Notes under the pieces: model-generated
What the model was told of the DNA's origin: nothing
The model's database searches: none
The model's input: the letters and a program-made list of their open reading frames with translations, nothing else
Origin: Coleophoma eucalyptorum
Lineage: Eukaryota > Ascomycota > Leotiomycetes > Helotiales > Dermateaceae
Reading direction: 5' to 3'
Assembly (NCBI GenBank): GCA_026120035.1
Contig: JALRME010000001.1
Location: 2,369,909 to 2,433,908, forward strand
DNA: 64,000 nucleotides
Position numbers and translations under genes: made by a program
In this document: one piece after another, positions 7,201 through 25,314 of the stretch
Numbering within the stretch: the stretch's first letter is position 1
Layout: each line of letters begins with the position of its first letter

Positions 7201-8483
7201 AAATCTGGTGACAATTAGCTCGAGGCTCCTTTTTATTTGCACGGCAAACGAACCGAGAGACATCGGTACTAGTTCCTCCCATATCAAAGCCAATTGTTGG
7301 TGTTTTGCTGATGGGGTCGTAGGATGTCCGGGCATAGCCAACAACACCTCCTGCAGGTCCAGAGAGAATTGCTCTCAAACCTGATAAGCCTGAGAATTCC
7401 ACAAGGCCACCATCACTTTGCATGAATTCGCAGCGGCAGGAGCTGTTTCTGATGTCTTCGAAGCCGGATTCAAACCCAGCTATGTACTTCTTGATTTCTG
7501 GTGTGAGGTAGGCGTCCGCAGTGGAAGAATTGCCACGGGGTACAACTTTCACCACTGGTGATATTTCTGAACTTGTCGAGATATGGGTGAATCCTATCTC
7601 CTCTGCAAGCTCCTTAACGGTCCTTTCGTGATCGCGGAATGTGTAACTGTGCATTAGGCATACGGCTATAGATCGATAGCCTTCATCATAAACTTCCTGC
7701 AATGACGCCTTCGTTGCTTTAACGTCTAGTTTCAAAATTAGATTTCCTGTCGATATATTTCATGAACATTGATATTCACCTAGTGGTTCCAAAACCCGCA
7801 CCGCTTCACCGGTAACTCCTAGCACAAGAGACGGGTCACTGGAGATTTCTACTGCCTTTGGTTTACGACTCTCAGTCCAACTCTCAAGTGTTACTCTTTC
7901 CGAGACTTCAACGACTTTCGAATACAGCACGTCTGGTTTATTAATGGCTAGGTCAAATAGCTTCGGTCTCGATTGGTTTCCAATGTGTAGTAAATCCTAC
8001 ACAGCGATGTCAGCACGGCTCGTATGAAATTATTAGTGAAAATAGGGATCCATACTTTGAGGCCCTTAGTAACGAAGAACGCCGTTTTCTCTCCCTTTCT
8101 TTCCAACAATGCATTCGTTGCAACCGTAGTTCCCATTCGTATTGACTCTACCCGACGTTAATTCTGTTGTCTTTGAGGTCACAGCAAGGACTGCACCCAC
8201 CAACTCCAGCAAGCGATATCTTCTGCCCTTTCGGATAAGGCGTATTGTTTGCAAATTCTAGGACCCTCCGAATTGCCTCGACGGGAGCATCTGCATAGTT
8301 GTTCGGGTCGACAGATAAGAGTTTGACTAAATAATCATTCTGCCCTGGTATACTCGCAATGCACTAACAAATCAGCATTGTTCTGCAATCCATTTAGATT
8401 GCTGCTTTGCTCACATCGGTAAAGGTTCCTCCTCTATCTATGGAAATCTTGATACCACTTTTTTGCGTTGCGATAGATCCCAT
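4217..8483 (-). CDS. Fused HyuA-HyuB 5-oxoprolinase/hydantoinase family enzyme (copy 1)
   Basis: ATP-dependent ring-opening enzyme of the 5-oxoprolinase/N-methylhydantoinase family, normally cytosolic. Eight exons (minus strand) 8483-8415, 8363-8201, 8147-8056, 7996-7780, 7725-7243, 7196-6827, 6776-5293 and 5241-4217 keep phase and give 1300 residues, the usual fused length. The start is the ATG before the family-typical N-terminus, with IDRGGTFTD at residues 15-23. HyuA features follow: [48 protein letters not shown] and GGAGGQHA. The HyuB half starts near [13 protein letters not shown] and contains [27 protein letters not shown] and the C-terminal SPGGGGWG. The junction after TDVSRF is the least certain: I used a GTGCAA donor. 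An inverted repeat shared by the cluster lies 326 bp upstream. Whether the substrate is 5-oxoproline, a substituted relative or a hydantoin cannot be read from the sequence. Confidence 0.9.
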
Positions 8484-9198
8484 ATTGAATTAGTGTAGTT
8501 TAACAACCAGGAATTAAATCAAGGAGTTCAATGAAGTCGAAAGACGATGATGGGGGTTTGTAATGAGGGGCTATATCTTCATGGCGGGCACCAAGGGATT
8601 TTGTATCGAGAATTCTGTAGAGTCTAGAAGTCAATGTGGTGCACAACAAATCCCTACGGAGCTCCACGTCTTCCAAAACTCTACTCCAGAGCCATACAGT
8701 ATGGAATCGATAGAGCAAATTACTCCTTGAAAGCGAGTGTACAGGAAATTCATTAGGAATTCTAACTCGGGAAAGTGGGCTGGGCACCGGTCGTGACATC
8801 CGAGCTGATCGGCTCCTAAGCAGAGTCGCCGAATCCTGCTCCTCCACCCCCACTAACAAATGCCTTAACCCTTGAATGATGTGATTGCGTGGTTGGAGAA
8901 TTGAGCATTTGTATTCACTATGATAGTCTACCTATTCCCACTTATCGGACTAAATGGTGAGAACAAACTCATGTTATGAATTTGCTGCTGCCAGATCTAT
9001 CAACCCACCATGGTATTGCTGTATTTGATTCCGTATCACAATTATGCTATTCTGTGACAAACATCTTCGCGGGGATTTTAGTTATTATCATGACTCAAAT
9101 TGATAATGTTCTTTTAATTCCCATTTACAGTGTATATCACTATTACGCAGTACCTAGCGCATGAGCCCAACCCCCGCATCCATCGTTGTTCCTGTGCA
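8484..9198. other. Intergenic region upstream of oxoprolinase copy 1
   Basis: About 715 bp containing the promoter of the leftward oxoprolinase gene and the 3' end of the leftward aminotransferase gene. It holds the inverted repeat at 8809-8832 described separately. An open frame at 8500-8859 lacks family features and codon structure and is not treated as a gene. Confidence 0.4.
8809..8832. promoter_or_regulatory. Cluster inverted repeat A, TCGGC-N14-GCCGA
   Basis: Perfect 5-bp arms TCGGC (8809-8813) and GCCGA (8828-8832) give CGG-N16-CCG, the two-triplet layout bound by Zn2Cys6 dimers. The site is 326 bp upstream of oxoprolinase copy 1. The same arms and spacing recur at 19546 and 23854, and with one arm difference at 10731. 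Binding by the cluster regulator is inferred. Confidence 0.65.
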
Positions 9199-10539
9199 CT
9201 ACTGAATATCACGCACAGTCTTGTCAATTGCCATGGCGAAATATTCTATATTGTTTTCGTTTAGACCAGCGATAGAAATCCTTGAAGTGTCGGCCATGTA
9301 GATATGGTATTCATCTGTTGCAGGGTCAGTAATAGAAAGAGTAGTCACGCTTCCAAGACTTGCCTTGCATGTGCTTGATTTGTGCGGGTGATATGCCAGT
9401 GTATCCAAACATTCCAGACTGTCTAATTATTGGAGACCAGTCCCCTGGCGTTTGAAGTCGGACAAGCTCATCGTATAACTTCTGTCGCATAGACTGAATC
9501 CGTGACGACATTGTGATGAGATCCTTGGCCCATTGCTCTTTTATTTCAGGGTTGCTAAGGACTGCTGATACAATGTGGGAGCCATAAGCGACGGGACTAG
9601 AGACCGTTGCTCTTTGTACGTTCTCGAGGATGGAATTGACATTCACTGCCATTTCTGGACTCTGAGTGACAAATGCCACCATTCCCGTTCGTTCTCCATA
9701 GAGGCCCATGTTTTTCGCAAAGGAGAGCGCAACAGCGGCCTCGATGCCGCAGTCCTCAATAAAATACTTCAGAGCCCATGCATCGTCATCGACAGAGCCC
9801 GAGTTGAAGCCAAGATATGCCGAGTCAAAAATTGGGAACAGTTGTCTTTCTTGGATTACCGATGCAATTTCCTTCCATTGAGTTTGGGATGGATCACAAC
9901 CAGTTGGGTTGTGGGCACAAGTGTGCAAGACAATGGCTGATCCAGGAATTGCTGCCTTCAGTGACTCCATATATCCTTCAAAGTCGAAAGCGCTGTTTTT
10001 GTAGTATGGCATTTTGTGGACCGCAAAATCGAGCGACGCGAAAAGAAGTTCGTGATTTGACCAGGTAGGGTCAGTGATATATACGTGACCATTTGATGCG
10101 TTTGCCTTTTTCAATGCAAGAGCTGCAAGATGGAGTGCTCCTGTGCCCGAGAGCGATTGACATGAGGCAATCTGAATATCATTTGCATCAGAGGTCGTCC
10201 AAAACAACAGCCAGAAAATTGACTTACGCATTCTCTTTTCAAAGCATCTGTACCATGAAATACGAGCTCAGTTACTCCGGTTCTGAAGCTTTTCGACCCA
10301 GCAATAGGGAGATATTCATGGCCACAGTCTGCAATCAAGGTTTTGGCCATACGCACACTTGGCAATACCCATGGTTTTCCATTCTCGTCGCGATATGTTC
10401 CAGCACCAACATTCACCTTCTTCGGATGCGGATCCGCAAGATAGTTTTTGGTGACCTCAAAAATTAAGTCAGCCGGTATATGGGGAGCTGACTCAAAGAC
10501 TGAGCGCTTTTCTGATTTGGAAGCTAGAATTGAACCCAT
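9199..10539 (-). CDS. Aspartate aminotransferase-type class I aminotransferase
   Basis: PLP-dependent aminotransferase of the aspartate/aromatic group, 411 residues, the usual length. Three exons on the minus strand: 10539-10228, 10171-9364 and 9314-9199. The first intron is GT-AG. The second has a GC donor (AAG|GCAAGT) with a TACTGAC branch and a CAACAG acceptor; it is the only junction that restores the family C-terminus. Motifs: SGTGALHLA (cofactor phosphate), HNPTGCD, DSAYLGF (pyridine nitrogen Asp and Tyr), the Schiff-base lysine in SFAKNMGLYGER at about residue 257, and the C-terminal substrate arginine in SRISIAGL. No mitochondrial presequence is evident. Besides aspartate and glutamate, such enzymes accept 4-hydroxyglutamate, which would fit the aldolase and hydroxyacid dehydrogenase nearby; that link is inference. 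It diverges from the Zn2Cys6 gene and shares its promoter. Confidence 0.92.
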
Positions 10540-10953
10540 TGTTGCGTGTGGACTAGAAGGATAGAGATTCGGGGAATGACACTAATAATAACACAGGATC
10601 AAAAGAACGAAGCACGTCGCAGTAACTCTTTAAAGAATACCTCTGACATGATTGTACTCGTAAACTTTCGGCTGCAACACGTATTTGGTCATGCTGGCAC
10701 TGTTCACTCACTCCGTCGTCGGCTAGAAGATCGGTCTCTTTCGCAAGTTGCCGAGTGCGAGCCAGAAAGTGGGATGGTATTCTGCCACAGATAAGATTAT
10801 CTATGTACCACGAGCGAAAGCGGTCTGGGCACAATTAATGGGTCTACAGTCTCCCAGACATCGGTCGAGGACGTCAACACCTGCATAGAGCTTGCATTGC
10901 TGGTTTAGTAGACAGTGTCCAGCCGGTATTTCGTGAAGACAACTTTAGGAGTC
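10540..10953. other. Divergent promoter, aminotransferase and Zn2Cys6 regulator
   Basis: A 414-bp region between two outward-facing genes. Inverted repeat D (10731-10754) lies almost exactly midway, about 190-200 bp from each start codon, so one site could serve both genes. Confidence 0.55.
10731..10754. promoter_or_regulatory. Cluster inverted repeat D, TCGGT-N14-GCCGA
   Basis: Arms TCGGT (10731-10735) and GCCGA (10750-10754) keep the CGG-N16-CCG core of the cluster motif, with one imperfect flanking base. Its place in the regulator gene's own promoter suggests autoregulation. Confidence 0.6.
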
Positions 10954-13366
10954 ATGTCGGCTTCTCGCTCTAATCAGTCCACCCGCATTGAGCATGGATC
11001 TCCTGAGGCACCTAGAAACCCACCTGCAAAGTTGATGCGGAGTTGTGTTGCATGTCGGCGGTGCCATGCGCAAAAGGTAAAGTGCAATGGCGAGCAGCCG
11101 TGTAGAAATTGTCGAGGTTCAAAAACTCCAGTCGAATGTGTATATCCCGTTCGAGATAGAAGAGTCACCATATCAGAGAGGTAATGTTCGACTGCACGAT
11201 CCATTGAATATATTTCTGTCAAAATCACCTCGGGATGTATAAGGTAGCAGCGGTACTGACTAGATTCAAGTTATATTCGGAAGCTTGAGGCGGAACTCAG
11301 CGCGGCAAAGCGAAAAGCATCTCCCGAGCAGAGTTTAGAAGCAGAAGCACCAGTGGAAAGGCAGCAAAAAACTCAATCACATGCCCGTCACTTACACAAG
11401 CGCTTCAAGACCTCAGCTGTCGATGCACCCAGTCCGTCTGGGGACGATGACGTGGCTGGGGATCCTGCAGAGCCCTTCTTGGACGAGTTGAATATCCAGC
11501 CAACATATATCGGCGAGGCTGCCTGTACGACTTTCGGAAGCAAGTTCCGCCAGTTTCTTTTGGGAGGCTGTGCTCCACCTCCTGTCCAGCGCCCAAAATA
11601 TTACAAGAACATTAAGTTGTTGCGTGCCTCTTGTACAGAATGCGAGCTGCCCAACCGCAGCGATGCACAACTCTTAGTCCGAGTCGTCCTCCGCTTTGTG
11701 GGAGCCGATTATCATCTCTTACGAAGAGCATCATTTTTAGAGAGACTAGACGAGACATATAAACTACCAGTTCTCGATGACCCCATCTGGTTATGTCGAC
11801 TGTTCACTGTATTAGCCTTAGGAGAAGTATACTCAGTACGCTCCTCTAGGCTTCATGGAGATGGTGTTCCTGGGACGGCCTTCTTCGTGAAAGCTATCGA
11901 GTTCTTTCAGGATCTTTACGAGGAGCCTACGTTGGAATATATTGAGACTCTTACCCTTCTTGTAAGTTTATCTTTGTGAAAATTTTACGTTCCCTTACGC
12001 AAAATTTCTATATGTTGTGTAATATTTTACATTTTGTATCGTCAACTGATAAGTACACAGTCTTTCTACTCAGTCATCCTCAACCGCCGAAATACAGCTT
12101 ATGCTTATATTGGGCTTGCTTTACGACTATCAGTAATGCTTGGATTACATCGTAAAGTGGAGGCTGATTCTACTATGACGGCCGGTGATCGAGAGCATCG
12201 GATTCGTGTGTGGTGGACGGTATATTGTCTAGATCGCTTGATGAGCTCCAAAGTTGGACTTCCCGCCATGATACAAGATGAAGATATTGATACGCAACTA
12301 CCATCTATGGATGGTCTCTCTGCCCAAGACATGCAGGATTTCTATGACCCAGCACATCTTATCGCACAGATTCACTTATCGAGAATAACCGGAAACGTGC
12401 TAAATAAGATTTATCATATACCGCAGCCAGGACGAGCAAATACCTTTCTTCAAGGTGTTCAAAAGACACTCACGAGTTTACGAACATTTCATGAAAATTT
12501 ACCTGCACTGTTGAGGCTCAATCAAAGCAATCCGGTGATGTATGCAAATCGATCTGTTGCATCTCTACATCTCCATTTCAATCAGGTACGCAACTCTCAG
12601 ACACTGCCAAATCGTTTCTAACCTCCCACAGTGCGTCATACTCACCACGAGACCAGTTTTGTTTTACGCATTTCGGTCAAAATTCCAAGATTTCGCACAT
12701 GGAATGTCAGAAGTCTCACATAAGGTACCACCCATAACACTAGCTTTGGCAGAAGCTTGCATACAGGCAGCGCGAGTATCAAATCGCATCTTATCCCAGC
12801 TTTGGGTTGACGGCTGCCTGGCCGTCTATGGATTTTATGATGCAGTTTCAATATTTTCGTCCACCCTGGTTCTCATGATCTCCTCGGCGATGCAGAACCC
12901 TGAAACTGATGTTGACGCAGACGGTATAGGCACGGCTTGGAGTGTGATCAGATCTATGCGAGAAGAAGGAAATGTACCAGCAAGTGAATATTTTGATCAG
13001 TTGGTACATTTAAAACAAGATCTAGAAGAAGCCTGCGCAAGAAGGAGACACTACAAACCACCGCAAGCTTCTAATAGTAATTCAACTGCATCGCCACAGC
13101 AATCGACAATAGCAGCTTCGAACAAGCCTCCGAATTTGCACGATCTTGCTCATGCTGCCTCCCATTTGTCAATACCCCAACCAGTTTCATCAACAATGGA
13201 AGCTATCAGCACCACAGATAACGTTCTTCAAGATCCATCTCTTTCCGAATTTCTCGCTGAGCCGCTAGCAAATTGGGACCCCAGTGTATTTGATCAAATT
13301 TTGACTAGCACCAACGGTGACCAGAGTTTTTGGAACTTTGACTGGGCCAAAGCCAACATGGGTTGA
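10954..13366 (+). CDS. Zn2Cys6 transcription factor with fungal-specific domain
   Basis: Nuclear regulator of 725 residues. Exons 10954-11180, 11271-11961, 12061-12585 and 12632-13366 are all in phase. The binuclear zinc cluster uses cysteines 34, 37, 44, 50, 53 and 62 (C-x2-C-x6-C-x5-C-x2-C-x8-C). A short linker and a coiled-coil start (YIRKLEAEL) follow directly, as in dimeric Gal4-type factors. The middle has the PF04082-type region, including LNRRNTAYAYIGLALRLSVM, GLHRK and RVWWTVYCLDR. The C-terminus is rich in Ser/Asn/Gln and ends in an acidic-aromatic stretch (FDQILTSTNGDQSFWNFDW) that looks like an activation domain. The start is the first ATG, nine codons before the basic region; a slightly longer non-ATG frame was ignored. 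Its position inside the cluster, and a CGG-N16-CCG repeat in each cluster promoter region (N15 or N17 in two), make it the likely pathway-specific activator. Confidence 0.93.
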
Positions 13367-13938
13367 AAAAGCTCTAGGGTTAGACCCCTAAAATCTCCCA
13401 TGAAGTTGTATGAGCTTGGGAGTATTCTGTTGGCGATAAACCAGAACCTTCTACAGTCAAATATTATTACTATCACCGTCATTCTTGAAATATATAAGAT
13501 TTAACCAGTAAATAGGAGTATTCAAAGAATTTCCTAATAGAGTAGAATAATATCAATTGACGCTTTACCATCAACAAGCCTCGTCTAGAAATTTATCACA
13601 ATCTTACATATACTTCTAATTCTGATAGAACTAAGCATGACCGGCGGCCAACTCGCCTATAATTATGGTAGCCGATAGATAAGGCCCGGCCTCTCGGCTT
13701 CAGGTAGAGTTTTGCCGAGTCGGAGTTGGCACAGCGAGAACGTATGGCATAAGTGGTGGTAGATATTTGCAATGCGGCAGCTGTGTACAGGGATCATATT
13801 GCTACATCGTGGTTGGCTTTTTCGAGTCCCGTTAGTAAGAAGTGAGGCAGACTTGCAAAGATAAGTACTATTTGTTCCACATGAAATCCTGAATTCTTGA
13901 GTAGCAAGCCAGCTCTGGGAATTCACATTATAGACAAC
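13367..13938. other. Intergenic promoter of oxoprolinase copy 2
   Basis: About 570 bp: the 3' end of the regulator gene, an AT-rich middle and a CG-triplet-rich stretch (13640-13725) that includes inverted repeat B. No RNA gene or repeat family recognised. Confidence 0.4.
13694..13718. promoter_or_regulatory. Variant cluster inverted repeat B, CGG-N17-CCG
   Basis: Arms TCGGC (13694-13698) and GCCGA (13714-13718) match the cluster motif but the spacer is one base longer (N15 between arms). The arms extend to 6 bp (CTCGGC/GCCGAG). It lies about 220 bp upstream of oxoprolinase copy 2. Lower confidence than the exact-spacing sites. Confidence 0.45.
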
Positions 13939-16900
13939 ATGCCGCATAGATCATCGTCACCGCGGCCTGCGGGCATACTCATCGCGATAGACAGAGGAGG
14001 AACCTTTACCGATTTGTAAGTGTTATTGTATTGTGTGAGGAAGCATTCACTGACCAAAGTCTAGCTGGGCGAAGATTCCTGGTCGCCAAAATCCTATGGT
14101 ATTTAAGCTTCTATCTGTGTGCCCAGATGCCTATCCAGATGCCCCAACGGAAGGTGTACGACGGATATTGGAGGAAGCTACCGGCACATCCATTCCGAAA
14201 GATCAGCCACTTGATATCAGTCTTGTTGAGTCCATTCGTATGGGAACAACTGTCGCTACTAAGTGAGTGATTTAGACGATCATCGAAAAACTAGCTTTTG
14301 CTGTGACACTAACAATTCCTCAGTGCTTTACTGGAAAGGCAGGGTGAACCTGTAGCTTTACTTATTACAAAGGGCATGCTAGACCTCTTGATAATTGGAA
14401 ACCAGGCACGACCAAACATTTTCGATCTCACTGTTAAAAAGCTTGACAAACTGTATGAAAAGGTCATTGAGGTGGACGAACGTGTAACGATAGAAGGATT
14501 CTCTGAGGATCCCGAACCAAAGCCAATAAATGCCTCCGATGATCCCGATCTAGTGGAAGGCTTATCTGGTGAAGTTGTGAGAATTTTGAAAAAGCCCAAT
14601 TATGAGAATGTCCGCAAGGATCTCCAAGCATTATGGGATGAAGGATACAGAAGTCTTGCAGTTGCTCTTATGCATTCTTATGCATATCCAACCCACGAGT
14701 TGGAAGTTGCACAGATTGCAAAGGATATGGGTTTCAAGATTTCTGTATCCTGCGAGTTACAACCAATGATCAAGATTATCCCCCGAGCACAATCGGCAAC
14801 AGCAGATGCATATCTGTCGCCCGTTATTCAACGCTACCTGGAAGGTTTTGCCAAAGGGTTCCTTGGAGAGTTTAAAGATGAGAAAAGCTCGAAAAAGTTG
14901 TTGCTTTCGCAATCTGACGGAAGTTTGACAACATTTGCAACATTTACAGGACTCCGTGCCGTGTTATCGGGTCCTGCTGGTGGAGTGGTTGGTATGGCTC
15001 GAACTTGCTTTGATGAGGTCTCCCAGGTTCCAGTCCTCGGTTTCGACATGGGTGGTACTTCAACAGATGTTTCCCGTTATGGAGGATCCTATGAGCACGT
15101 TTTCGAGAGTACCATTGCCGAGGTCACTATTCAAAGTCCTCAGCTCGACATCAGCACCGTGGCTGCCGGTGGTGGCTCAATGCTTTTCTGGCGCAATGGT
15201 CTCTTTGTTGTGGGTCCAGAATCTGCCGGAGCATTTCCAGGGCCTGCTTGCTATGGAAAGGGAGGTCCTTTGACCGTCACAGACGCCAATCTCTTTCTTG
15301 GCCGTCTAGTTGCAGACTTCTTCCCTTCAAAGCTCAATCTGGACGTAGTCAAGTCAAAGTTTGCGGCATTGACTGATGAGGTGAACTCCGACAGAGCTGG
15401 TTTGCCACCGATGACGGCAGAGGAAGTTGCAAACGGATTCTTGTCTGTCGCCAACGCTGCGATGGCTAGACCTATTAGAAATCTTAGTGAAGGTCGTGGT
15501 TTTGATACTTCAGCGCACAACTTAGCTTGTTTTGGCGGCGCTGGTGGTCAGCATGCCACAGCTGTTGCTCGTGATTTGGGCATCAAAAGGGTTCTTATCC
15601 ACCGTCTTTCAAGTATTTTGTCAGCTTATGGAATGGCCTTGGCGGATATTGAGGTCGATCTTCAAGAGCCAGAATCAGTTGCGTTTAATGAAAGCACCAA
15701 ATCTCGCCTAGAAAGTCGAATGGAAGCTATCAAGGAGAAAGCCAGCACCAAGCTTGCTTCGCAGGGCTTTACTGGATCACAAATAACTCACAACTATTTC
15801 CTAAACATGAGGTACAAGGGTAGCGATACATCTCTCATGGTCCAAGGTACAGGAAAAGAAACAGACTTTGCAGATGCTTTCACAAAGCGGCATATGCGGG
15901 AATTTGGATTTACTCAACCTAGAGAGATTCTCGTTGATGATATTCGTGTTCGAAGCGTGGGGCGGAGTATGAACCTCGAGAAACTTGGAGGCTTGGAGAT
16001 TCCCGAAAATTTGAGCATACTGGAATACGCCGGCAAAGATAAGTCGGCCTATACTCGACAGGTCTACTTTGAAGGGAGCGGATGGGTTGATACTCTTGTC
16101 TTTCACCTTGACAAGCTACCTGCCGCCCACAAAGTTTCCGGTCCAGCTATAATCATAGATCCTACCCAGACTATCGTTGTCGATCCGGCCAGCGAAGCAA
16201 TCATCCTCCCACAACATGTTATCATCGATTTATTAGACTCAAAAAGTCAATCTATCAGCTCAGAAGTTGTCAACCCCATTCATCTATCGGTTTTTGGGCA
16301 CCGCTTTATGAGTATCGCCGAGCAAATGGGAACAACTTTCCAAAAGACCTCGATATCGACTAACATCAAAGAACGACTAGATTTCTCATGTGCCATTTTC
16401 TCCTCCGATGGTGGACTAGTGGCAAATGCGCCTCATATCCCTGGTCATCTCGGATCTATGGCATATGCCATTGCATATCAAGCCAACAAATATCCCAAAG
16501 GAGAACTGAAACCTGGAGACGTCCTATTATCCAATCACCCCATTGCTGGAGGAACACATTTGCCAGACTTGACGGTCACCACCCCAGTGTTTGATGATGA
16601 CGAAAATCCACAGGAAATTCTATTTTTCGCGGCAAATCGTGGTCATCATGCAGATATTGGTGGCATTGCTGCTGGATCCATGCCCCCCAATTCCACAGAA
16701 TTGTGGCAAGAAGGCGCTGCAATTGAGTCTTTCAAGCTAGTTAGGGAAGGCGAGTTTGATGAAGCTGGTGTCACAGAACTTTTGTACGACATTCCAGGAT
16801 CTTATCCTGGTTGTAGTGGAACTAGATGCCTGAAGGACAATATTGCAGATTTGAAGGCAGCAATCGCAGCCAACAAGCGCGGTATATCTCTACTTTCTGC

Positions 16901-17894
16901 AATGATCAAGGAGTACACATGGCCAGTTATCAAGCTTTACATGGCTGCTATTCAAAAGAACGCCGAGGATAGTGTTAGGGATCTTCTCAAAAAGTTCAGC
17001 GTCCGTTTCCATGGCCAGCCTCTGGAAGCTATTGACTACCTCGATGATGGAACACCTCTTGCTGTTAAGATTAGCATTGACGGCGAAACGGGGTCTGCCA
17101 AGTTCGACTTCACCGGAACAGGTCCAGAGACTTTCAATAACTTAAATGCGCCACCAGCTGTCATGTTCAGCGGCATCATGTACTGTTTGCGATCGATGAT
17201 TTCCACTGATATTCCTTTGAATCAAGGTTGCCTTCAGCCAATAGAAGTCTACTGTCCACCAGACACTGTCCTTTCTCCATCACTGAAAGCAGCTACAGTT
17301 GGATCGAATGTCGAAACTTCGCAGCGTATCATCGACCTGATCTTCAAGGCTTTCCGCGCTGCTGCTGCAAGTCAAGGCTCAATGAACAATCTCACTTTTG
17401 GTTACGGAGGCACGGATTCTGTAGGCAACGTTACCAAAGGCTTTGGCTACTACGAAACAATTGCTGGCGGAGCTGGAGCTGGAGACGATTGGCAAGGACA
17501 AGATGGCGTCCATACCAATGCCACAAACACCAGAATGACAGATCCGGAAGTGTTTGAGAAACGCTACCCAGTAATCCTGCGAGAGTTTTCAATTCGCAAA
17601 GGCAGTGGTGGAAAAGGTCGCAATAGAGGTGGAGACGGTTGTATTCGTGACATTGAAATTCGTCTTCCAATGCAGGTCAGCATTTTGAGTGAGAGGAGAG
17701 TCATTGCTCCATATGGTATGGCAGGTGGAGAAGAAGGAAAGAGAGGAGTTAACGTTTGGATTCGAAACGATCCACTAGATGGCTCAGTCCGTACCATTAG
17801 CCTGGGTGGGAAGGCATCTGTCATGATGATCCCTGGAGATCGCATTATCATCAATACCCCAGGTGGAGGAGGTTATGGAGTCCCAGAGGTTTAA
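13939..17894 (+). CDS. Fused HyuA-HyuB 5-oxoprolinase/hydantoinase family enzyme (copy 2)
   Basis: Second ATP-dependent oxoprolinase/hydantoinase of the cluster, 1281 residues. Exons 13939-14015, 14065-14262 and 14324-17894 keep phase. IDRGGTFTD lies at residues 17-25, followed by [33 protein letters not shown] begins near residue 331, and [16 protein letters not shown] follows. The HyuB half begins near residue 742 ([14 protein letters not shown]) and has [20 protein letters not shown] and the C-terminal NTPGGGGYG. The catalytic and glycine-rich motifs are shared with copy 1, but the intron positions differ: two here against seven there, none at the same codon. The pair is therefore not a recent tandem duplication. 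Two non-identical copies suggest division of labour, for example two related lactams or a ring and its substituted form, but this is inference. Confidence 0.92.
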
Positions 17895-18194
17895 ACTCAA
17901 CATTTTGTTATTTGATATTACTAGGTCAGGTAGTTAGGGGTTGGCGTTGTAGAATCGTTAAATTGTCATATTTTTCAAAGTTCAGCATGGAACATAAATT
18001 AAGTGTATTTTCCCAGATTTTGATAACTTTTTTGGGAACTGTTGTTGAGATATTGCTTTAGCCCTTCTTTTCTATCCAAAGAATATAGTCTCAACTAAAA
18101 GAATCGAAGCACATTGAATCAATCACTCCGCCTTAGTGTAATTTCAATTGTTCCATGTGTGCATTGGTTTAATTAGAATTAAGTTACGTTGAAG
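17895..18194. other. Convergent intergenic region
   Basis: About 300 bp, AT-rich, between the convergent ends of oxoprolinase copy 2 and the M20 gene. It would hold both 3' untranslated regions; nothing else seen. Confidence 0.4.
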
Positions 18195-19315
18195 CTATGA
18201 TTTATTAAGGCAGTGCAGTGTGAGCTTTTTGTAGGCTTGCACGGCCTCAAGCAACTCATCCACCTCAATCTGCTCGTTCTTCCCATGTGCATTAAGGATT
18301 GTTCCAGGTCCATAAAGATATTTCTTGTGCTTGCCTTGCAGTCTCGGTACATCGGTACCAAAAGCTGCTGCATAAGTCTTGAAGCCTAAAGGATATAAAT
18401 CAGCATGCTAAGAATCATTTGTACATTTCCACGGCCACACCCACCTTTGATATCGTGATCCAACATGGTCTCAGAGTATTCGAAATTGAATGAGACTTCC
18501 ACATCAGGATATCTCGCTACAATATCTGATATCTGTGATTTGATGGCGGGGAGATCCTTGGCAACGCGCACTGCACATAAAGCCTTGGCAGAAGCTGCCA
18601 GTACATTGTACGCAACGCCACCAGACATCTGGCCAACATGGAAAGTTGATGGACCAAGCAACTCGGATTTTGGCCACTCTGTCGCTAGCAGATCCGAAAG
18701 CACTCCAACAAGAGCTCCATTGGCACTGGATCCTCTCTCTGGGTATCCGGAATGGCTGGCAACCCCCTTCGCAGTCAATTCGAAGACTAAGTGACCCTTG
18801 TGCCCAAGGCCTAACTTGCTTTCGGTGGGCTCGCCAAAGATGACAGCTTCCCACTGTAATGCCATATTGTTGGCAGCGAGCATTCCTGGACCTCCTTTTT
18901 CTTCGCCTACAACGAAAAGAAAGCTGATATCAGAACCCTCTTCACTAAGCTTATTCTCCCTTCGGAGCTCCTCCACAGCTTCAATCTGTGCTGCTAGTGG
19001 CCCCTGATCGTCACATGCACCGCGACCGAAAATTGTCTTTCCGTCTTCTGACACTGACATTGGGATATGGGGTGGAACTGTATCAATGTGACTTGTCAAG
19101 CAGACTCTGGTCTTGCGGCATGTTTTTGGCCCAAGGTAGGCATAAACATTATGGCGTGTTGAACCAGGAGAGATGGGGATTCTCTCGACCGTATAACCTA
19201 AACTCTGAAGATGTGCCTCTAGAAAAATCCCAACAGCAAGTTCGTCATCGCTTGTGCTGGGAATATCGATGAGCTGCTTCAGTAGAGCAACGACAGGAAG
19301 GTCCAGAGCCGACAT
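18195..19315 (-). CDS. M20 family amidohydrolase (ArgE/DapE/acetylornithine deacetylase-like)
   Basis: Zinc-dependent amidohydrolase of the M20 family, 353 residues. Exons 19315-18445 and 18385-18195 (minus strand) join in phase 1 across a 59-bp intron with a GTGGGT donor. Metal and catalytic motifs: SHIDTVPP (His76, Asp78), GRGACDDQGP (bridging Asp), VVGEEKGG (catalytic Glu pair), GEPTESKLGLGHKG, a dimerisation-domain ASHSGYPERG, and the last metal ligand in ILNAHGK near the C-terminus. Related enzymes remove N-acetyl, N-succinyl or N-carbamoyl groups from amino acids. In hydantoin pathways an M20 enzyme (HyuC type) follows HyuAB, so an N-acyl or N-carbamoyl amino acid made by this cluster is a reasonable substrate; the sequence alone looks closest to acetylornithine deacetylase. 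It diverges from the hydroxyacid dehydrogenase gene. Confidence 0.9.
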
Positions 19316-19682
19316 AATTGGGTTTTATTTGGACAGATTATAAAAAGATTCTGAGCGGATACAGCACTTCCAGTCTCTCTCTTGCAAGTCCTGCATGTCG
19401 AATTATAGCCTGAATCTGCCATATCGCCATGGAACTTCTGACGACCTCTCGCTTAGACTTCTCTTTCGCTTATCCGCCCGCAGCTTTGGGCTCTTACTCA
19501 TACGTATTTTCACCCCCATTGTCAACCGCCGTCTTATCAACAAGATCGGCCATCGCCTGCCCGAGCCGATCATCGCCGAGATCTGCTCCCACTGTTGCGG
19601 TCGTCCTCGCTAATCTGTTTCAGTCACCTCTTATGGTATTTGGTGGCCGACATCTCCTGATGTGTTTGACAGGTTTGTAACG
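19316..19682. other. Divergent promoter, M20 gene and hydroxyacid dehydrogenase gene
   Basis: Short region between divergent genes containing inverted repeat E. The bases just before the dehydrogenase ATG (TTTGACAG) resemble an intron acceptor, so a 5' untranslated intron is possible. Confidence 0.45.
19546..19569. promoter_or_regulatory. Cluster inverted repeat E, TCGGC-N14-GCCGA
   Basis: Perfect arms TCGGC (19546-19550) and GCCGA (19565-19569) with exactly N14 between them (CGG-N16-CCG), as at 8809 and 23854. It lies about 230 bp from the M20 start and about 115 bp from the dehydrogenase start. Confidence 0.65.
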
Positions 19683-20738
19683 ATGGAATCCTTGACCAGT
19701 ACCCTAAAACGCAAACCAACAGTTCTGGTGGTTACTTCATCAGTTCGTGCGATCCAATCTGAACAATGGAAACGAGCTCAAACACAATACAATATTCTGA
19801 ACTACGACTGTAAAGACGTCGAGGAATTCTGCAATCGGCTCTCCCCTGGAGGCTTATACAGCGAAATCGATGTGATTGTTCGGACTGGTTGGCTCAAAGC
19901 TGAGCCTTATTCTGATCTTCTTTTATTCACCGAAGCGGTTGCAAAATATTATCCACCCACATTAAAGCTCATTGTATGCTCAGGGCATGGCTACGATGCA
20001 ACTGATGTTCCTGCGTTAACAGCAAGGGGCATATGGTATTGCAACACGCCAGACACATGTACGGAAGCGGTTGCAAACACCGCTTTGTACCTCATTTTGG
20101 CTTCCTATCGTTATTTCACTTTTGCTGAGCATTGCGCACGCAATGACTGGGCTGCAAGTCGGTCTTTGGGAAACAGGGCTGTAGATCCATTAGGAACTAC
20201 CCTCGGGGTTATTGGGCTGGGAGATATTGGGATTCGTACTGCACAAAAAGCCGCGCTCGGTCTTGGAATGGAATTATGCTACCATAATAGACGGCGTGAT
20301 CTGGAGAGAGAGAGGCTGGTTGGCGTTGATATTGCGTATTGTGAGTCTTTGGCTGATCTGTTGAAAGTATCGGATTGTGTTTTGGTCGCATGTCCATATA
20401 CATCCGCTACTCATCACATGCTTTCAACCAAGGAGTTCAATCTTGCTAAGAAAGGAGGAATGCGAATTGTTAATATTGCTCGAGGCAAGATTGTCGATGA
20501 GGCAGCGATGCTGCAAGCAATTAAGGATGAGAAAGTGGTTGGTATCGGACTTGACGTTCATGAGAATGAGCCGGGAATCAATGAAGCTTGGTCGGAAGAT
20601 TTTATGGTCACCGTCTTACCACATATTGGAGTTTGTTCAAGTACCAGCTGGGACGGTTTTGAGAGGGTATGCTGGGAAAATGTTGAGACTTTCTTCGAAA
20701 CTGGAAAACCACTCAACCCTGTCAATATAATTACCTAG
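19683..20738 (+). CDS. D-isomer-specific 2-hydroxyacid dehydrogenase (glyoxylate/hydroxypyruvate reductase-like)
   Basis: Cytosolic NAD(P)H-dependent reductase of 2-oxo acids, single exon, 351 residues from the ATG at 19683; another in-frame ATG at 19662 would add seven residues. The nucleotide-binding motif is GVIGLGDIGIRTA. The catalytic triad is visible in order: arginine in NIARGKIVDE, glutamate in DVHENEP and histidine in LPHIGVCSS. The basic residues after the binding fold (HNRRRDLERER) favour NADPH. The family includes glyoxylate and hydroxypyruvate reductases. In this cluster it could reduce glyoxylate or another 2-oxo acid released by the aldolase or the aminotransferase, but the substrate is not determined by the sequence. 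Confidence 0.9.
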   Translation: MESLTSTLKRKPTVLVVTSSVRAIQSEQWKRAQTQYNILNYDCKDVEEFCNRLSPGGLYSEIDVIVRTGWLKAEPYSDLLLFTEAVAKYYPPTLKLIVCSGHGYDATDVPALTARGIWYCNTPDTCTEAVANTALYLILASYRYFTFAEHCARNDWAASRSLGNRAVDPLGTTLGVIGLGDIGIRTAQKAALGLGMELCYHNRRRDLERERLVGVDIAYCESLADLLKVSDCVLVACPYTSATHHMLSTKEFNLAKKGGMRIVNIARGKIVDEAAMLQAIKDEKVVGIGLDVHENEPGINEAWSEDFMVTVLPHIGVCSSTSWDGFERVCWENVETFFETGKPLNPVNIIT

Positions 20739-21175
20739 AAATATGAATTTGAAATAAAACTTTTCAAAAGGGTCAATTGACTCTTAGTTTCGGATTTTGA
20801 GAACAGGAGCACTTTTAGATACCTGGCTAGAAAGTGATAATTGCACTGTGTCCTTATATTTTTCATTTGAATCATTTTTGACGAAGACTTCAGCAAGGAG
20901 TATATTTACATATTTCACAGCTCTGTATCTTTAATCACTAGCGACATCCATGCGCACTTTATGCTTTTTATGGCTCTTGTTTAACAAGCATGAAATCTTG
21001 TCTCTATATAGATTATCCCACTACTGCCCAGCCTTACATTGCATCCTTCTAAAGAAACTACCTCATACACCTGACAAATCCAGTTTGACTCTATGTCTAT
21101 GATATATCACAGGTTTGACGATTCTTCATAGGTCAACAAGAAAATCTCTAGCTATTGCCTTATACAAAAACACTT
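20739..21175. other. Convergent intergenic region
   Basis: About 440 bp, AT-rich, between the 3' ends of the hydroxyacid dehydrogenase and MFS genes. No feature beyond presumed 3' untranslated regions. Confidence 0.4.
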
Positions 21176-22905
21176 CTACGTGGAGTATCTGAAGTACACA
21201 TTCAGGTCTCCCTTCTCAGGCTCGTCGGGCAACGGAGTCCCAGCTGCAATAGCTTCCTGGATCCTAGTATCGCGACGCTTATTGACAACGTTCATACCGA
21301 CCACTAAGATGATAACCTATCAAGGAGTTAGTCAGGAGCTCGCTTACATATAGTTGAATGTGGGACACTTACCATCAACCCAGCCAGGACTGTAAGACCA
21401 AGAGAGATCGAGAGGCCTTTGATATATCTAGGAGCACTTTCTGTAGTGAAAACCTGGCCAACGGCAACACCGGCAGTGTTTGCACATGTGAGAGTCGCAC
21501 CAATCATGGTTGCTCTCTTGAAATGATTGGAGACATTGTCATTCAGCCACATCAGAGACATGCCAGTTGTTGGATAGATACCCATCACAACGATAAAGCA
21601 GGCAAAGTAGCGAGCACCAACATTATCAACACCGATGAGGATTGCGTAGCCGATGATCAAACAGATGAGTGGTCCACCGATCCAGTATCCTGTACATCAT
21701 TCAACAGGTATCCTGCGGATATAGGAAGGTCAACTTACCTCTTTGTGACTTATCCGACATCCACGCTACGAAGCAGAACCAAATAAGACCCCAGATATAG
21801 ATGGGCACTGTAAGTAGGTTTGCATTGACAGACGAGTACCCCATACCGGTGATGATTTTCGGCAGGAAAGTGGTGAAACCGTAGAGTGAAATGTCGACCG
21901 AGAATTGGAATACCACACTTGAAGATGTCAATGATAGGGTTTTCTAGGAGTTTTGTCGATAACTTACAAGGCATACCACTTCGGATCGACGAACGCCGAA
22001 AGAACAGATGACCAGCTAAACTCTTCGTCAACACCCCAATGAGGATCCATTGCATATCGTAAGTTCATCATGGCTCTCTCGTCCTCCGTCAAAAACCAAG
22101 CAGTTCGAGGATTTTGTGGGAAAAGCCATAGGAACGCGGGAACCACAACCACGGTCAGGATTGCCTCTACGATGAAGAGCCAACGCCATCCCTGGAAGTC
22201 ACCAGGCCCCTTAATTTGAGTAAGCCCATAGGCCAACAGGCCACCAAATGCACTGGAGAGCGCACTGAAAGCGAAAATTAATGCTGACCGCTTGCCTCGC
22301 TCAGACTTTTTGTACACAATGCCGATGTAGACATCAATACAAGGAATAAGACCTGCTTCAAAGAATCCTAGCAAGAGTCGACAAATGTAGAGGCCCCACC
22401 AGTTTTCGATGAATCCCATGCCGAGTGTGACACATCCCCATGAGAACGCAATAAAGCTTAAAAGATACTTGGGTCCAATGATTTTCAGAAGGATGGCGAC
22501 TGGTGTTTCGAGCGTGACATAGGTTGCATAGAGCAAGCTGACGGATGTTCCGTACTGATTGCCGACAAGTCCAATATCAGTCGGCATACCAGCGATGTTC
22601 GCATTACCAATATTACTCCTGTCATCCTGTCAGAGTCGTTCGACAAACATTGATTTGGGGATGGTAGAACCGACCGGTCCAAGTTTGCCAACATGTAGAA
22701 TAACCCCATCAAGCCAATGCAGTATATCTACGAAGAAATCAGTATTGGAATCATTACCAACTCCTATTTTGCCCACATCGAATTTCCACATCATTTTCCG
22801 CTCCTTAATTGGATCGATGTAGTGCTCAGAACTGCCATCTGCAACCTCCTTCCCTGTGCTGATCGCTGGGGACTGCGTTGCCGTCTTTTCGTCCGTCGCC
22901 GACAT
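21176..22905 (-). CDS. MFS permease, Dal5/allantoate-type anion:cation symporter
   Basis: Plasma-membrane transporter of the major facilitator superfamily, 489 residues. Six exons on the minus strand: 22905-22777, 22727-22675, 22618-21968, 21917-21739, 21689-21373 and 21316-21176. All phases agree and introns are about 50 bp; the donor at 22674 (GTCGGT) is weak but the join restores NLDRSNIGNA, the family signature. Other features are the N-terminal charged cytosolic tail, LVGNQYGTSVSLL, the RLLLGFFEAGLIPC motif of the first half, WMSDKSQRG in the central loop, and about 12 membrane segments. Relatives carry allantoate, nicotinate, tartrate and other small carboxylates. It is a plausible importer of the cluster's substrate. 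The upstream region contains two candidate regulatory sites, F and an AGCAGGG inverted repeat. Confidence 0.9.
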
Positions 22906-23107
22906 CTTGAGATATCGTAATTCACAAAGTAGACAATTCTGAGTAGAAGTGATACTATCCAGAAAGTATCGAAACTCTGGAATCAAGGTACTGTTTTGAC
23001 CGACATGAAGCTTGGCTGTTTACCAGCAGGGTATTAAAATAGCCCTGCTTCTCATCGCGGTATGTCATTCGCTAGTATCCTGCCCGTCACCCATCTTGGA
23101 GTAGTGC

Positions 23108-23130
23108 TCGGTCCCTGAAGATGTAGCCGA
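23108..23130. promoter_or_regulatory. Variant cluster inverted repeat F, CGG-N15-CCG
   Basis: Arms TCGGT (23108-23112) and GCCGA (23126-23130) with N13 between them, one base shorter than the exact cluster motif. It lies about 200 bp upstream of the MFS start. Weak on its own; listed because of its location. Confidence 0.35.
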
Positions 23131-23383
23131 TCATGTTGATAAGACTCATAAGAGCTGTGGCATGACTACGAAGTAAAAGCCAATGTGGTCTCGAGATATT
23201 GCGCTTATTATCCAGAACACGCAAGCTAATGGCCGCAATCTGCTGTGCCAGGAACTATATTTTAGTAGACTAGATTGCTTGATAGGGTACAATTCAGAAA
23301 ATTGGTTGGCGACTGATAAGCACTGAGGCAGGTACTGTACTTAGTCGTTCGGTAGCGGATACTCTTCAAGCAGGTGAGATATA

Positions 23384-23397
23384 CCCCCCCCCCCCCC
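23384..23397. repeat. C14 homopolymer
   Basis: Run of 14 cytosines in the MFS/DapA promoter region. Length may vary or be affected by sequencing error. A similar C15 run is at 50846. Confidence 0.8.
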
Positions 23398-23853
23398 ACA
23401 CAAATTTTGGGTCACATGATTTTACCGACGGGCGATATGCAATCGGCTCATCATCCCCCATACAAAGTATTGGAGAAGTGGGAGTGGGAGTTCATACTCA
23501 TCACTATGAAAAGTTGATGAATGTCCATCCAAACTTGTATTACCGGCTGGGGCAGCTCTCGTATCCACGAGAAAGAAAGTATGTTACCGGCAATGCTTTC
23601 GGTTATCTGCTTTCCTCGCCGTAGCAGCTGTCGTTGCAGGTTTGATCAAAATAGCTAAACTATTCAAACTTTGCAAGATTTTAGCATCAAAACTGGGTAT
23701 GGGGGTTGGAGCCTTTTAATTGATAAAAATGCCACTCAAGTGAATGTGATGTTTTCTTTTTCGCCTCGGGGCGAAACATTGTATTACTCACAGGATACAT
23801 TCAAGCTTTGGTGGACAACAGTGGACAACAATGCTTCGGCTCACTGCCGGTCA

Positions 23854-23877
23854 TCGGCTTCCCCATCAAACGGCCGA
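23854..23877. promoter_or_regulatory. Cluster inverted repeat C, TCGGC-N14-GCCGA
   Basis: Perfect arms TCGGC (23854-23858) and GCCGA (23873-23877), N14 between them, 123 bp upstream of the DapA-family start codon. The flanks also match site A: both are preceded by A and followed by AT. Confidence 0.65.
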
Positions 23878-23999: not shown

Positions 24000-24956
24000 A
24001 TGTCTACAACAATCTCTGTTCCTCCCTCGGGAGTTTGGTGTCCAGCCGTTACTTTCTTTAATCACGACAATGACACCCTCGATCTCGCTGCGCAAAAGCA
24101 ATACGATGCTTATTTATCGAAGACGGGACTTGCTGGGCTGGTTATTCTAGGAACCAATGCAGAGGCCTTTTTGCTCACCCGAGAAGAGCGATACTCACTT
24201 ATTGCTACTGCCCGTGAAGCAGTAGGACCTTCGTTCCCAATTATGGCAGGTGTCGGAGCACACTCTACGAAACAAGTCCTCGAGCTTATTGCCGACGCAA
24301 GCAAAGCCGGTGCCACCTACGTCCTTGTCTTACCTCCAGCTTATTTTGGCAAAGCAACTACACCTGCTGTGATTGAGAGATTCTACGCTGACGTCTCTGC
24401 TGGCTCACCTCTGCCAATTATTCTTTACAACTTCCCAGGCGTGTGCAATGGTGTCGATCTGGACTCAGAACTTATTACGAAGCTGGCCAAGAAGCACGCA
24501 AACATTGTTGGAGTCAAGTTGACCTGTGCCTCGGTGGGCAAGATTACACGTCTCACAGCTTCGCTTCCTGCCTCGGAGTTCGCGACTTTCGGAGGACAAT
24601 CAGACTTCCTTCTTGGCGGTATGGCTGTTGGTTCTGCCGGTTGCATTGCTGCATTTGCAAATGTATTCCCAAAGACACTCGCTAAGATATACAACCTGTA
24701 CAAGGATGGCAAGACTGAGGAGGCTTTGAAGCTGCACCGCATTGCTGCATTGGCTGAGAGTCCTTGCAAGGCTGGAATTGCCACTACGAAGTATGCTGCG
24801 GCTATTTTCACCGCCAAGGAAGCCGGAATTGAGGGTGCAGAGGAAAAGTTGAAGCCGAGAACTCCATATTCTGAGGCATCGGCAGATGCTAAGGCTCAAG
24901 TGAAATCAGTAATGGCTGAGATGGCCTCAATAGATTCGTCGCTACCATTGGTTTAG
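24000..24956 (+). CDS. DapA-family aldolase (dihydrodipicolinate synthase / 4-hydroxy-2-oxoglutarate aldolase-like)
   Basis: Class I aldolase of the DHDPS/N-acetylneuraminate lyase family, single exon, 318 residues from the first ATG (24000). It has GTNAEAFLLTREER in place of the usual GTTGE loop, YNFPG with the catalytic tyrosine (Tyr143) and VGVKLTC with the Schiff-base lysine (Lys173). Fungi make lysine by the aminoadipate route, so a true dihydrodipicolinate synthase is not expected. Fungal members are usually sugar-acid or 4-hydroxy-2-oxoglutarate aldolases that release pyruvate plus an aldehyde. With the neighbouring aminotransferase and 2-hydroxyacid dehydrogenase this resembles the last steps of hydroxyproline/4-hydroxyglutamate breakdown; this link is inference. 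L-2-keto-3-deoxygalactonate aldolase is an alternative. Confidence 0.88.
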   Translation: MSTTISVPPSGVWCPAVTFFNHDNDTLDLAAQKQYDAYLSKTGLAGLVILGTNAEAFLLTREERYSLIATAREAVGPSFPIMAGVGAHSTKQVLELIADASKAGATYVLVLPPAYFGKATTPAVIERFYADVSAGSPLPIILYNFPGVCNGVDLDSELITKLAKKHANIVGVKLTCASVGKITRLTASLPASEFATFGGQSDFLLGGMAVGSAGCIAAFANVFPKTLAKIYNLYKDGKTEEALKLHRIAALAESPCKAGIATTKYAAAIFTAKEAGIEGAEEKLKPRTPYSEASADAKAQVKSVMAEMASIDSSLPLV

Positions 24957-25314
24957 ATGATAATAAATTCCAAAGCAATAGATTTATTTACAAAAGCCTA
25001 CAACAGTGAAATTAAAGATGAAATGCCGCGTTCGATATGCTTACGACAAATGCATTAACTTCATGCTTGGTTGTCGAGCTTCATTTGTAGCGAGTACGAC
25101 GCTTATGTATGACGAAAGTTTTGGTCATATTACGCCATGTATTAGCCATATATCTGCTGATTTTCGAAACGAGGAATAGCGGTATTCAAGATCAACACTA
25201 CTTTACAACTGAGAGTCATATCTAGGTTTCTTTTCTTAATTTATATTATCTGATTTACGTTCGAGGGTCATTACAAGACTGAGCCGGAACCCCACGAATA
25301 TATATATACTCGAG
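24957..25314. other. Intergenic region, end of the cluster to monooxygenase
   Basis: About 360 bp, AT-rich. I see no CGG-N15/16/17-CCG repeat here, so the cluster regulon appears to end before the monooxygenase gene. Confidence 0.4.

What the first reader, a model, noticed from the sequence alone, without database searches (positions are those of the whole stretch)
8809..23877. One inverted repeat, CGG-N16-CCG, marks the promoters of a whole catabolic cluster
Exact-spacing copies TCGGY-N14-GCCGA occur at 8809-8832, 10731-10754, 19546-19569 and 23854-23877. They fall in the promoter regions of oxoprolinase 1, aminotransferase/regulator, M20/hydroxyacid dehydrogenase, and aldolase/permease. Near copies with N17 (13694, oxoprolinase 2) and N15 (23108, permease side) cover the rest. 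With nine or ten fixed bases at a fixed distance, a chance hit in the roughly 3 kb of promoter DNA would be rare, and four at the same spacing much rarer. CGG triplets in inverted orientation are the classic target of Zn2Cys6 dimers, and the cluster encodes one with the same site in its own promoter. I propose a self-regulated regulon covering 4.2-25 kb.
Basis: partly seen in the sequence, partly recalled or inferred. Interest (0 to 1): 0.9.

Follow-up and report, generated by a model that had tools for sequence, protein, structure and literature searches.

The report
Shared control site across fungal cluster
A fungal cluster of eight genes that looks like a breakdown pathway carries the same paired DNA sign in each of its six control regions, very probably the landing site of the cluster's own zinc-cluster regulator; this way of control is well known, while the pathway itself still needs a name.

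Summary
TCGGY-N14-GCCGA is at the four stated places, with N17 (13694) and N15 (23108) copies in the other two control regions: one copy in each of six regions serving eight genes. The host is a 45.26-Mb fungal genome near Coleophoma. The exact motif has 70 places genome-wide, no excess over a reversed control; the cluster expects 0.03 and has 4. Among tetramer palindromes with spacing 0-25, TCGG-N16-CCGA ranks first; among trimers CGG-N16-CCG does not. Six oxoprolinase paralogue 5' regions lack the TCGG form. The regulator is a canonical Zn2Cys6 protein. Regulator, oxoprolinase 2, permease and aldolase are linked in several other fungi. Four of six sites have GATAAG within 35 bp, suggesting added nitrogen control. 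Best reading: a self-regulated, pathway-specific regulon limited to this cluster. Binding, expression, and conservation of the motif in other fungi could not be tested. Spacing 15-17 falls in the published Oaf1 range, but the Oaf1 inner bases are absent. New member of a known kind; the substrate is a guess.

The parts
4217..8483 (-). Oxoprolinase 1 (hydantoinase A+B type, several introns)
   Evidence: PF02538 over 4217-5251; tblastn of oxoprolinases P0086/P0096, main pieces about 50%; ATG at 8483 read by eye
8809..8832 (.). Site 1, TCGG-N16-CCGA, centre 338 bp before oxoprolinase 1
9199..10539 (-). Class I aspartate-type aminotransferase (introns; both ends read by eye)
   Evidence: PF00155; aspartate aminotransferases are the best solved relatives
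10731..10754 (.). Site 2, N16, midway in the divergent aminotransferase/regulator promoter (about 204 and 212 bp to the starts); GATAAG 35 bp away
10954..13366 (+). Zn2Cys6 regulator, exons 10954-11180, 11271-11961, 12061-12585, 12632-13366, 725 aa
   Evidence: spliced; PF00172 and PF04082 on exon pieces; homologues
13694..13718 (.). Site 3, N17 variant, centre 233 bp before oxoprolinase 2; GATAAG 10 bp away
13939..17894 (+). Oxoprolinase 2, full length
   Evidence: PF05378, PF01968, PF19278, PF02538 on 14313-17894; P0086 96%
18195..19315 (-). M20 metallohydrolase, ArgE/DapE-like (ends read by eye)
   Evidence: PF01546, PF07687; TIGR01910 below its cut-off
19546..19569 (.). Site 4, N16, in the divergent M20/dehydrogenase promoter; CTTATC 7 bp away
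19683..20738 (+). D-2-hydroxyacid dehydrogenase
   Evidence: PF02826, PF00389; nearest solved: D-mandelate dehydrogenase, then a ketogluconate reductase and glyoxylate reductases
21176..22905 (-). MFS permease, anion:cation-symporter-like (introns; ends read by eye)
   Evidence: PF07690 on one 221-aa piece; TIGR00893 below its cut-off
23108..23130 (.). Site 5, N15 variant, centre 214 bp before the permease; GATAAG 7 bp away
23854..23877 (.). Site 6, N16, centre about 135 bp before the aldolase
24000..24956 (+). DHDPS-family aldolase
   Evidence: PF00701; 3qfe at 506 bits, 4-hydroxy-2-oxoglutarate aldolase 3s5n at 99 bits

Best explanation
The sites are operators of one pathway-specific regulon. 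The cluster's Zn2Cys6 protein binds as a dimer, one zinc cluster on each TCGG half-site, across a spacer of 15-17 bp, and activates all eight genes, its own included, when the pathway's inducer is present. GATAAG boxes beside four of the six sites suggest that a general nitrogen (GATA) regulator acts with it. Shown: sites, spacing, promoter positions, enrichment, the DNA-binding domain, linkage of part of the cluster in other fungi. Inferred: that this protein binds them, dimerisation, activation rather than repression, autoregulation, the role of GATAAG. Guess: the substrate is a 4-hydroxyglutamate-like or cyclic (oxoproline) amino acid, opened by the oxoprolinases, transaminated, and split by the aldolase to pyruvate and glyoxylate, which the dehydrogenase reduces.
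For: One site in each of six promoters. Enrichment against the genome and first rank in the tetramer dyad scan. A refined form TCGGYYYC-N10..12-GCCGA has 20 places genome-wide: 5 in this cluster; of the 15 elsewhere 10 lie inside open frames of 200 aa or more; the form was derived from the sites, so it leans to them, and it misses site 4. Canonical Zn2Cys6 domain. No TCGG or CCGA at 24957-25315, before the next open frames to the right. Between promoters only one similarity has E below 0.01, a 20-bp piece at sites 4 and 5, so the sites are not copies of one duplicated promoter.
Against: No binding or expression data. No orthologous DNA was on hand, so conservation of the motif is untested (searches found none). 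Two of six sites differ in spacing, which a rigid dimer would not favour. In the trimer dyad scan CGG-N16-CCG is not first. The paralogous regulator's divergent promoter lacks the TCGG form and has only two CGG-N17-CCG. Some species in both lists have regulator and oxoprolinase homologues far apart by locus tag. Another Zn2Cys6 protein of this genome could bind instead.
Confidence: 0.75

Rival explanations
1. The sites are functional, but bound by another Zn2Cys6 protein (or a heterodimer) encoded elsewhere; the resident regulator uses a different site.
For: The genome has many related proteins (65 matched stretches, the regulator's own exons among them), and which one binds cannot be told from sequence. 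CGG pairs are typical targets of the class (PMC5559640, passage).
Against: No genome-wide excess of the motif, as would be expected for a wide-acting factor; in the window the sites are confined to the cluster that encodes the regulator, and one lies in its own promoter.
Confidence: 0.15
2. Chance: CGG/CCG pairs picked out after the fact.
For: The motif was chosen after reading; 1 of 200 shuffled sets also has some tetramer dyad in 4 promoters, and several trimer dyads do as well as CGG-N16-CCG.
Against: The expected number in the promoters is 0.076 for the three spacings against 6 seen; one per promoter, none missing; zero elsewhere in the window.
Confidence: 0.04
3. The sites are an oleate-response-type element for an Oaf1-like factor (peroxisomal or fatty-acid control).
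For: The published Oaf1 form CGGNNNTNAN9-12CCG (PMC2174516, passage) spans spacing 15-18, which covers 15-17.
Against: The inner T-N-A form matches 0 of 12 orientations of the six sites, and the gene families do not look like fatty-acid genes.
Confidence: 0.03

Closest known systems
PglR and the PGL1 pigment cluster of Fusarium (CGG-N3-CCG)
   Same: A Zn2Cys6 regulator encoded in its own cluster, with one palindrome of inverted CGG enriched in the promoters of the genes it regulates (PMC4872168, passages).
   Different: Spacer 3 instead of 15-17; a biosynthetic cluster; there backed by overexpression and by conservation across species.
Oaf1 oleate response element, CGGNNNTNAN9-12CCG
   Same: Inverted CGG with a spacer of 15-18 (PMC2174516 table, passage).
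   Different: The internal TNA form matches 0 of 12 orientations here; different gene content.
War1 (CGG-N23-CCG) and Gal4 (N11)
   Same: CGG pairs at long fixed spacing, sites of Zn2Cys6 factors (cited in PMC4872168, passage, which prints the Gal4 site as CGG-N11-CGG).
   Different: Other spacings; other pathways.

Membership tests
Gal4-type Zn2Cys6 regulator | C-X2-C-X6-C-X5..12-C-X2-C-X6..9-C zinc cluster | tested here: met
   CRRCHAQKVKCNGEQPCRNCRGSKTPVEC; PF00172 39.3 bits against cut-off 21
Gal4-type Zn2Cys6 regulator | Fungal_trans middle domain | tested here: met
   PF04082 74.1 bits against cut-off 23 on one exon piece
Gal4-type Zn2Cys6 regulator | Linker and coiled coil for dimerisation | tested here: inconclusive
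   A stretch like ESYIRKLEAEL after the linker is kept in many homologues, read by eye; no structure predicted
Gal4-type Zn2Cys6 regulator | Binds paired CGG triplets | not testable with these tools
   Sites are present; binding needs an experiment
Cluster-specific self-regulated regulon (as PglR) | Same palindrome in all cluster promoters, the regulator's included | tested here: met
   6 of 6 promoters, with spacing 15 (once), 16 (four times) or 17 (once)
Cluster-specific self-regulated regulon (as PglR) | Site not common elsewhere in the genome | tested here: met
   70 places in 45.26 Mb, no excess over control
Cluster-specific self-regulated regulon (as PglR) | Site conserved in orthologous clusters | not testable with these tools
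   No fungal DNA of relatives found; two searches gave none
Cluster-specific self-regulated regulon (as PglR) | Expression of the genes depends on the regulator | not testable with these tools
   Needs a deletion or overexpression strain
Oaf1 oleate response element | CGG-N3-T-N-A inner bases | tested here: not met
   0 of 12 orientations
Oaf1 oleate response element | Spacer 15-18 | tested here: met
   15, 16, 17

The most novel reading that the evidence does not exclude
An undescribed, ancient pathway of ascomycete fungi breaks down a hydroxylated glutamate or oxoproline compound (for example 4-hydroxy-5-oxoproline to 4-hydroxyglutamate to 4-hydroxy-2-oxoglutarate to pyruvate and glyoxylate). 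It is run by one Zn2Cys6 regulator through an N16 palindrome coupled with GATA boxes into a composite inducer-plus-nitrogen switch.
Probability: 0.25. Interest if true: 0.6.

Novelty: new member of a known kind. Interest (0 to 1): 0.42.

Why it matters
It gives a directly testable operator for a regulator and gene cluster whose members are linked in several classes of ascomycetes, ties two oxoprolinases of unknown substrate to an aldolase, aminotransferase and dehydrogenase, and would add a 15-17 bp spacing case to the Zn2Cys6 code. If bound, the same site could be used to find the pathway's genes in other fungi.

Tried and rejected
Trimer dyads over the six promoters: ATT-N14-AAT is in 5, and CGG-N16-CCG shares 4 with six others (CTG-N3, ATA-N4, AGA-N4, ATA-N7, TCG-N18, TTG-N20 with their complements), so trimers alone do not single it out; TCG-N18 is at least partly the same base pairs one step outward. 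Search for further targets: of 15 refined matches outside the cluster, 10 lie in open frames of 200 aa or more; the other 5 (L049, L050, L051, L058, L062) were not annotated, and the 66 outside places of the exact motif were not followed beyond the loci. Paralogous regulator's divergent promoter: no TCGG form; two CGG-N17-CCG only, too weak to count. Oxoprolinase paralogue 5' regions: L032-L037 reach the N-terminal part, L038 does not; 0 of 7 has TCGG-N15..17-CCGA, while L032 and L035 each hold one bare CGG-N16-CCG. Orthologous DNA in the bacterial/archaeal and viral collections: none. Literature, full-text searches of the held library only: oxoprolinase with Zn2Cys6 and gene cluster, 0 papers; CGGN16CCG in three spellings, 0; oxoprolinase with Aspergillus, transcription factor and cluster, 17 listed, none on such a cluster by title and start of abstract, none read; 4-hydroxyglutamate with fung and hydroxyproline, 3 listed, off topic by title, none read; 4-hydroxy-2-oxoglutarate aldolase with fung and gene cluster, 9 listed, none on topic by title, none read; Zn2Cys6 with CGG triplets and spacing, 2 listed, passages of PMC5559640 seen, PMC12719309 not opened; oleate response element with Oaf1, 0; War1 with CGG, 4 listed, passages of all four seen, of which PMC2447501 and PMC8877037 gave nothing on spacing.

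Full report
Observation. Two more copies of TCGG...CCGA with spacers 17 and 15 lie at 13694 and 23108. The six sites fall one each in the six control regions that serve eight genes (the stretch between permease and aldolase counted as two, split at 23450); none lies in an open frame of 150 aa or more. To the right, 24957-25315 has no TCGG or CCGA. To the left, the open frame 3451-4209 runs towards oxoprolinase 1. So the sites mark the cluster and stop at its edges.

Chance. The window lies in a 45.26-Mb fungal genome. The exact motif has 70 places there, and the reversed control is as common (97 against 113 strand-hits), so the motif is not globally enriched. For the 20.8-kb cluster 0.030 are expected and 4 seen (P 3.4e-8). 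For N15-17, 1087 genome-wide against 1986 for the reversed control, 0.076 are expected in 3.2 kb of promoter and 6 seen (P 2.5e-10). These values ignore that the motif was chosen by eye. A scan of all tetramer inverted dyads with spacing 0-25 puts TCGG-N16-CCGA first, in 4 of 6 promoters; the next, at 3, is CGGC-N14-GCCG, which is the same sites, and the others listed are at 2; any dyad reached 4 in 1 of 200 shuffled sets. With trimers the picture is less clean: ATT-N14-AAT is in 5 and CGG-N16-CCG is one of seven at 4. Between promoters only one BLAST similarity has E below 0.01, a 20-bp piece, so the sites are not remnants of one duplicated promoter.

Specificity. Seven stretches at the 5' side of other oxoprolinase genes were fetched; six reach the N-terminal part, and none of the seven carries TCGG-N15..17-CCGA, though two hold a bare CGG-N16-CCG. 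The genome has nine loci with Hydantoinase_B matches, two of them in this cluster. A refined form, TCGGYYYC-N10..12-GCCGA, has 20 places, 5 in this cluster; of the other 15, 10 lie in open frames of 200 aa or more. Since the form was taken from the sites, this is a description, not a test.

Regulator. Spliced from four exons, the 725-aa protein has a canonical Zn2Cys6 domain and a Fungal_trans domain. Among solved structures only Ppr1 passes E 0.001 (9.4e-4), with Put3 next (0.02) and Gal4 weak (0.42). The search gave 85 related proteins; 51 of them show the six-cysteine pattern near the start, nine of these being weak, more distant hits (P0077-P0085), and the rest are fragments or models without it. 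In 15 chosen full-length homologues all six cysteines are invariant. The closest, 90% identical, is from Coleophoma crateriformis, whose oxoprolinase 2 is 96% identical.

Conserved linkage. Comparing by eye, 20 of 85 regulators have the same source and the same longest-contig length as one of the 120 listed (of 7978) oxoprolinase-2 homologues, and nine of these pairs have near-consecutive locus tags, such as BP5796_06112/06111 and LTR84_000612/000613. On contigs of millions of bases a shared contig alone is not neighbourhood. Gene models that wrongly fuse neighbours show the regulator beside the aldolase (Fonsecaea nubica, 68% to this aldolase over 311 aa) and beside the permease (three fungi, 61-66% over the piece compared). 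Against this, Talaromyces atroroseus (UA08_02518 and UA08_07317), Pseudogymnoascus VKM F-4520 (V502_05055 and V502_02296) and Aspergillus nanangensis (FE257_010637 and FE257_006252) have their listed homologues far apart by tag; these may be paralogues, but linkage is not shown there. A paralogous regulator in this genome (36-42% in the pieces) again lies divergent to an aminotransferase (40%), with no TCGG-N15..17-CCGA in 16 kb.

Second layer. GATAAG occurs 8 times in 3.2 kb of promoter against 1.46 expected from the rest of the window (P 1.4e-4); 201 kb of other loci have a similar rate, 0.50 per kb. That background is mostly coding, and base composition was not controlled. GATAAG lies within 7, 7, 10 and 35 bp of four of the six sites, 108 and 533 bp from the other two; one site has about a 5% chance within 45 bp. 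Sites 4 and 5 share a 20-bp piece that includes GATAAG and one half-site, in mirror orientation. That GATAAG is the target of fungal nitrogen GATA factors such as AreA is recalled, not tested. It suits a cluster that feeds on an amino-acid-like compound.

Function. Families: two oxoprolinases, an aspartate-type aminotransferase, an M20 hydrolase, a D-2-hydroxyacid dehydrogenase, an MFS permease and a DHDPS-type aldolase; the NCBIfam matches are all below their curated cut-offs. Order of reaction and substrate are my inference from general enzyme knowledge. The 4-hydroxy-2-oxoglutarate aldolase of known structure is among the relatives of the aldolase, but at 99 bits against 506 for a putative DHDPS-family protein (3qfe; its fungal source is recalled), so the substrate is open.

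Comparison with known systems. The closest precedent is PglR of Fusarium, a cluster-encoded Zn2Cys6 protein with CGG-N3-CCG enriched in the promoters it regulates; the same paper cites War1 CGG-N23-CCG (PMC4872168, passages). Oaf1 is listed as CGGNNNTNAN9-12CCG (PMC2174516, passage), spacing 15-18, but its inner form matches 0 of 12 orientations here. A search for N16 spelled three ways found no paper in the held library. I therefore call this a new member of a known kind. What could not be tested is binding, expression, and whether the sites are kept in the linked clusters of other fungi.

Noticed in passing
window 13678, 19533, 23138, 10790: GATAAG boxes (either strand) 7-35 bp from four of the six sites; GATAAG about fivefold more frequent in the cluster's promoters than in the rest of the window.
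   Followed up: partly
window 19531-19550 and 23126-23145: A 20-bp piece, 95% identical in mirror orientation, joins a GATAAG box to one half-site at sites 4 and 5.
   Followed up: partly
window 23599-23622: A seventh, degenerate copy with spacing 16 (TCGG...CCGT) between permease and aldolase (seen in L018; coordinates converted by hand).
   Followed up: no
L047 4600-8000: Paralogous aminotransferase and regulator, again divergent, with two CGG-N17-CCG between them; a further gene beside them (L047 2991-4058) looks by eye like a P1-type peptidase (recalled, not tested).
   Followed up: partly
G000, nine and thirteen loci: Nine loci with Hydantoinase_B matches and thirteen with DHDPS matches in one fungal genome.
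   Followed up: no
P0054: In Fusarium oligoseptatum a PF01042 (RidA-type) domain is in one gene model with the regulator homologue, hinting that such a gene lies beside it there.
   Followed up: no
window about 23380-23398: A run of C in the permease/aldolase intergenic stretch.
   Followed up: no
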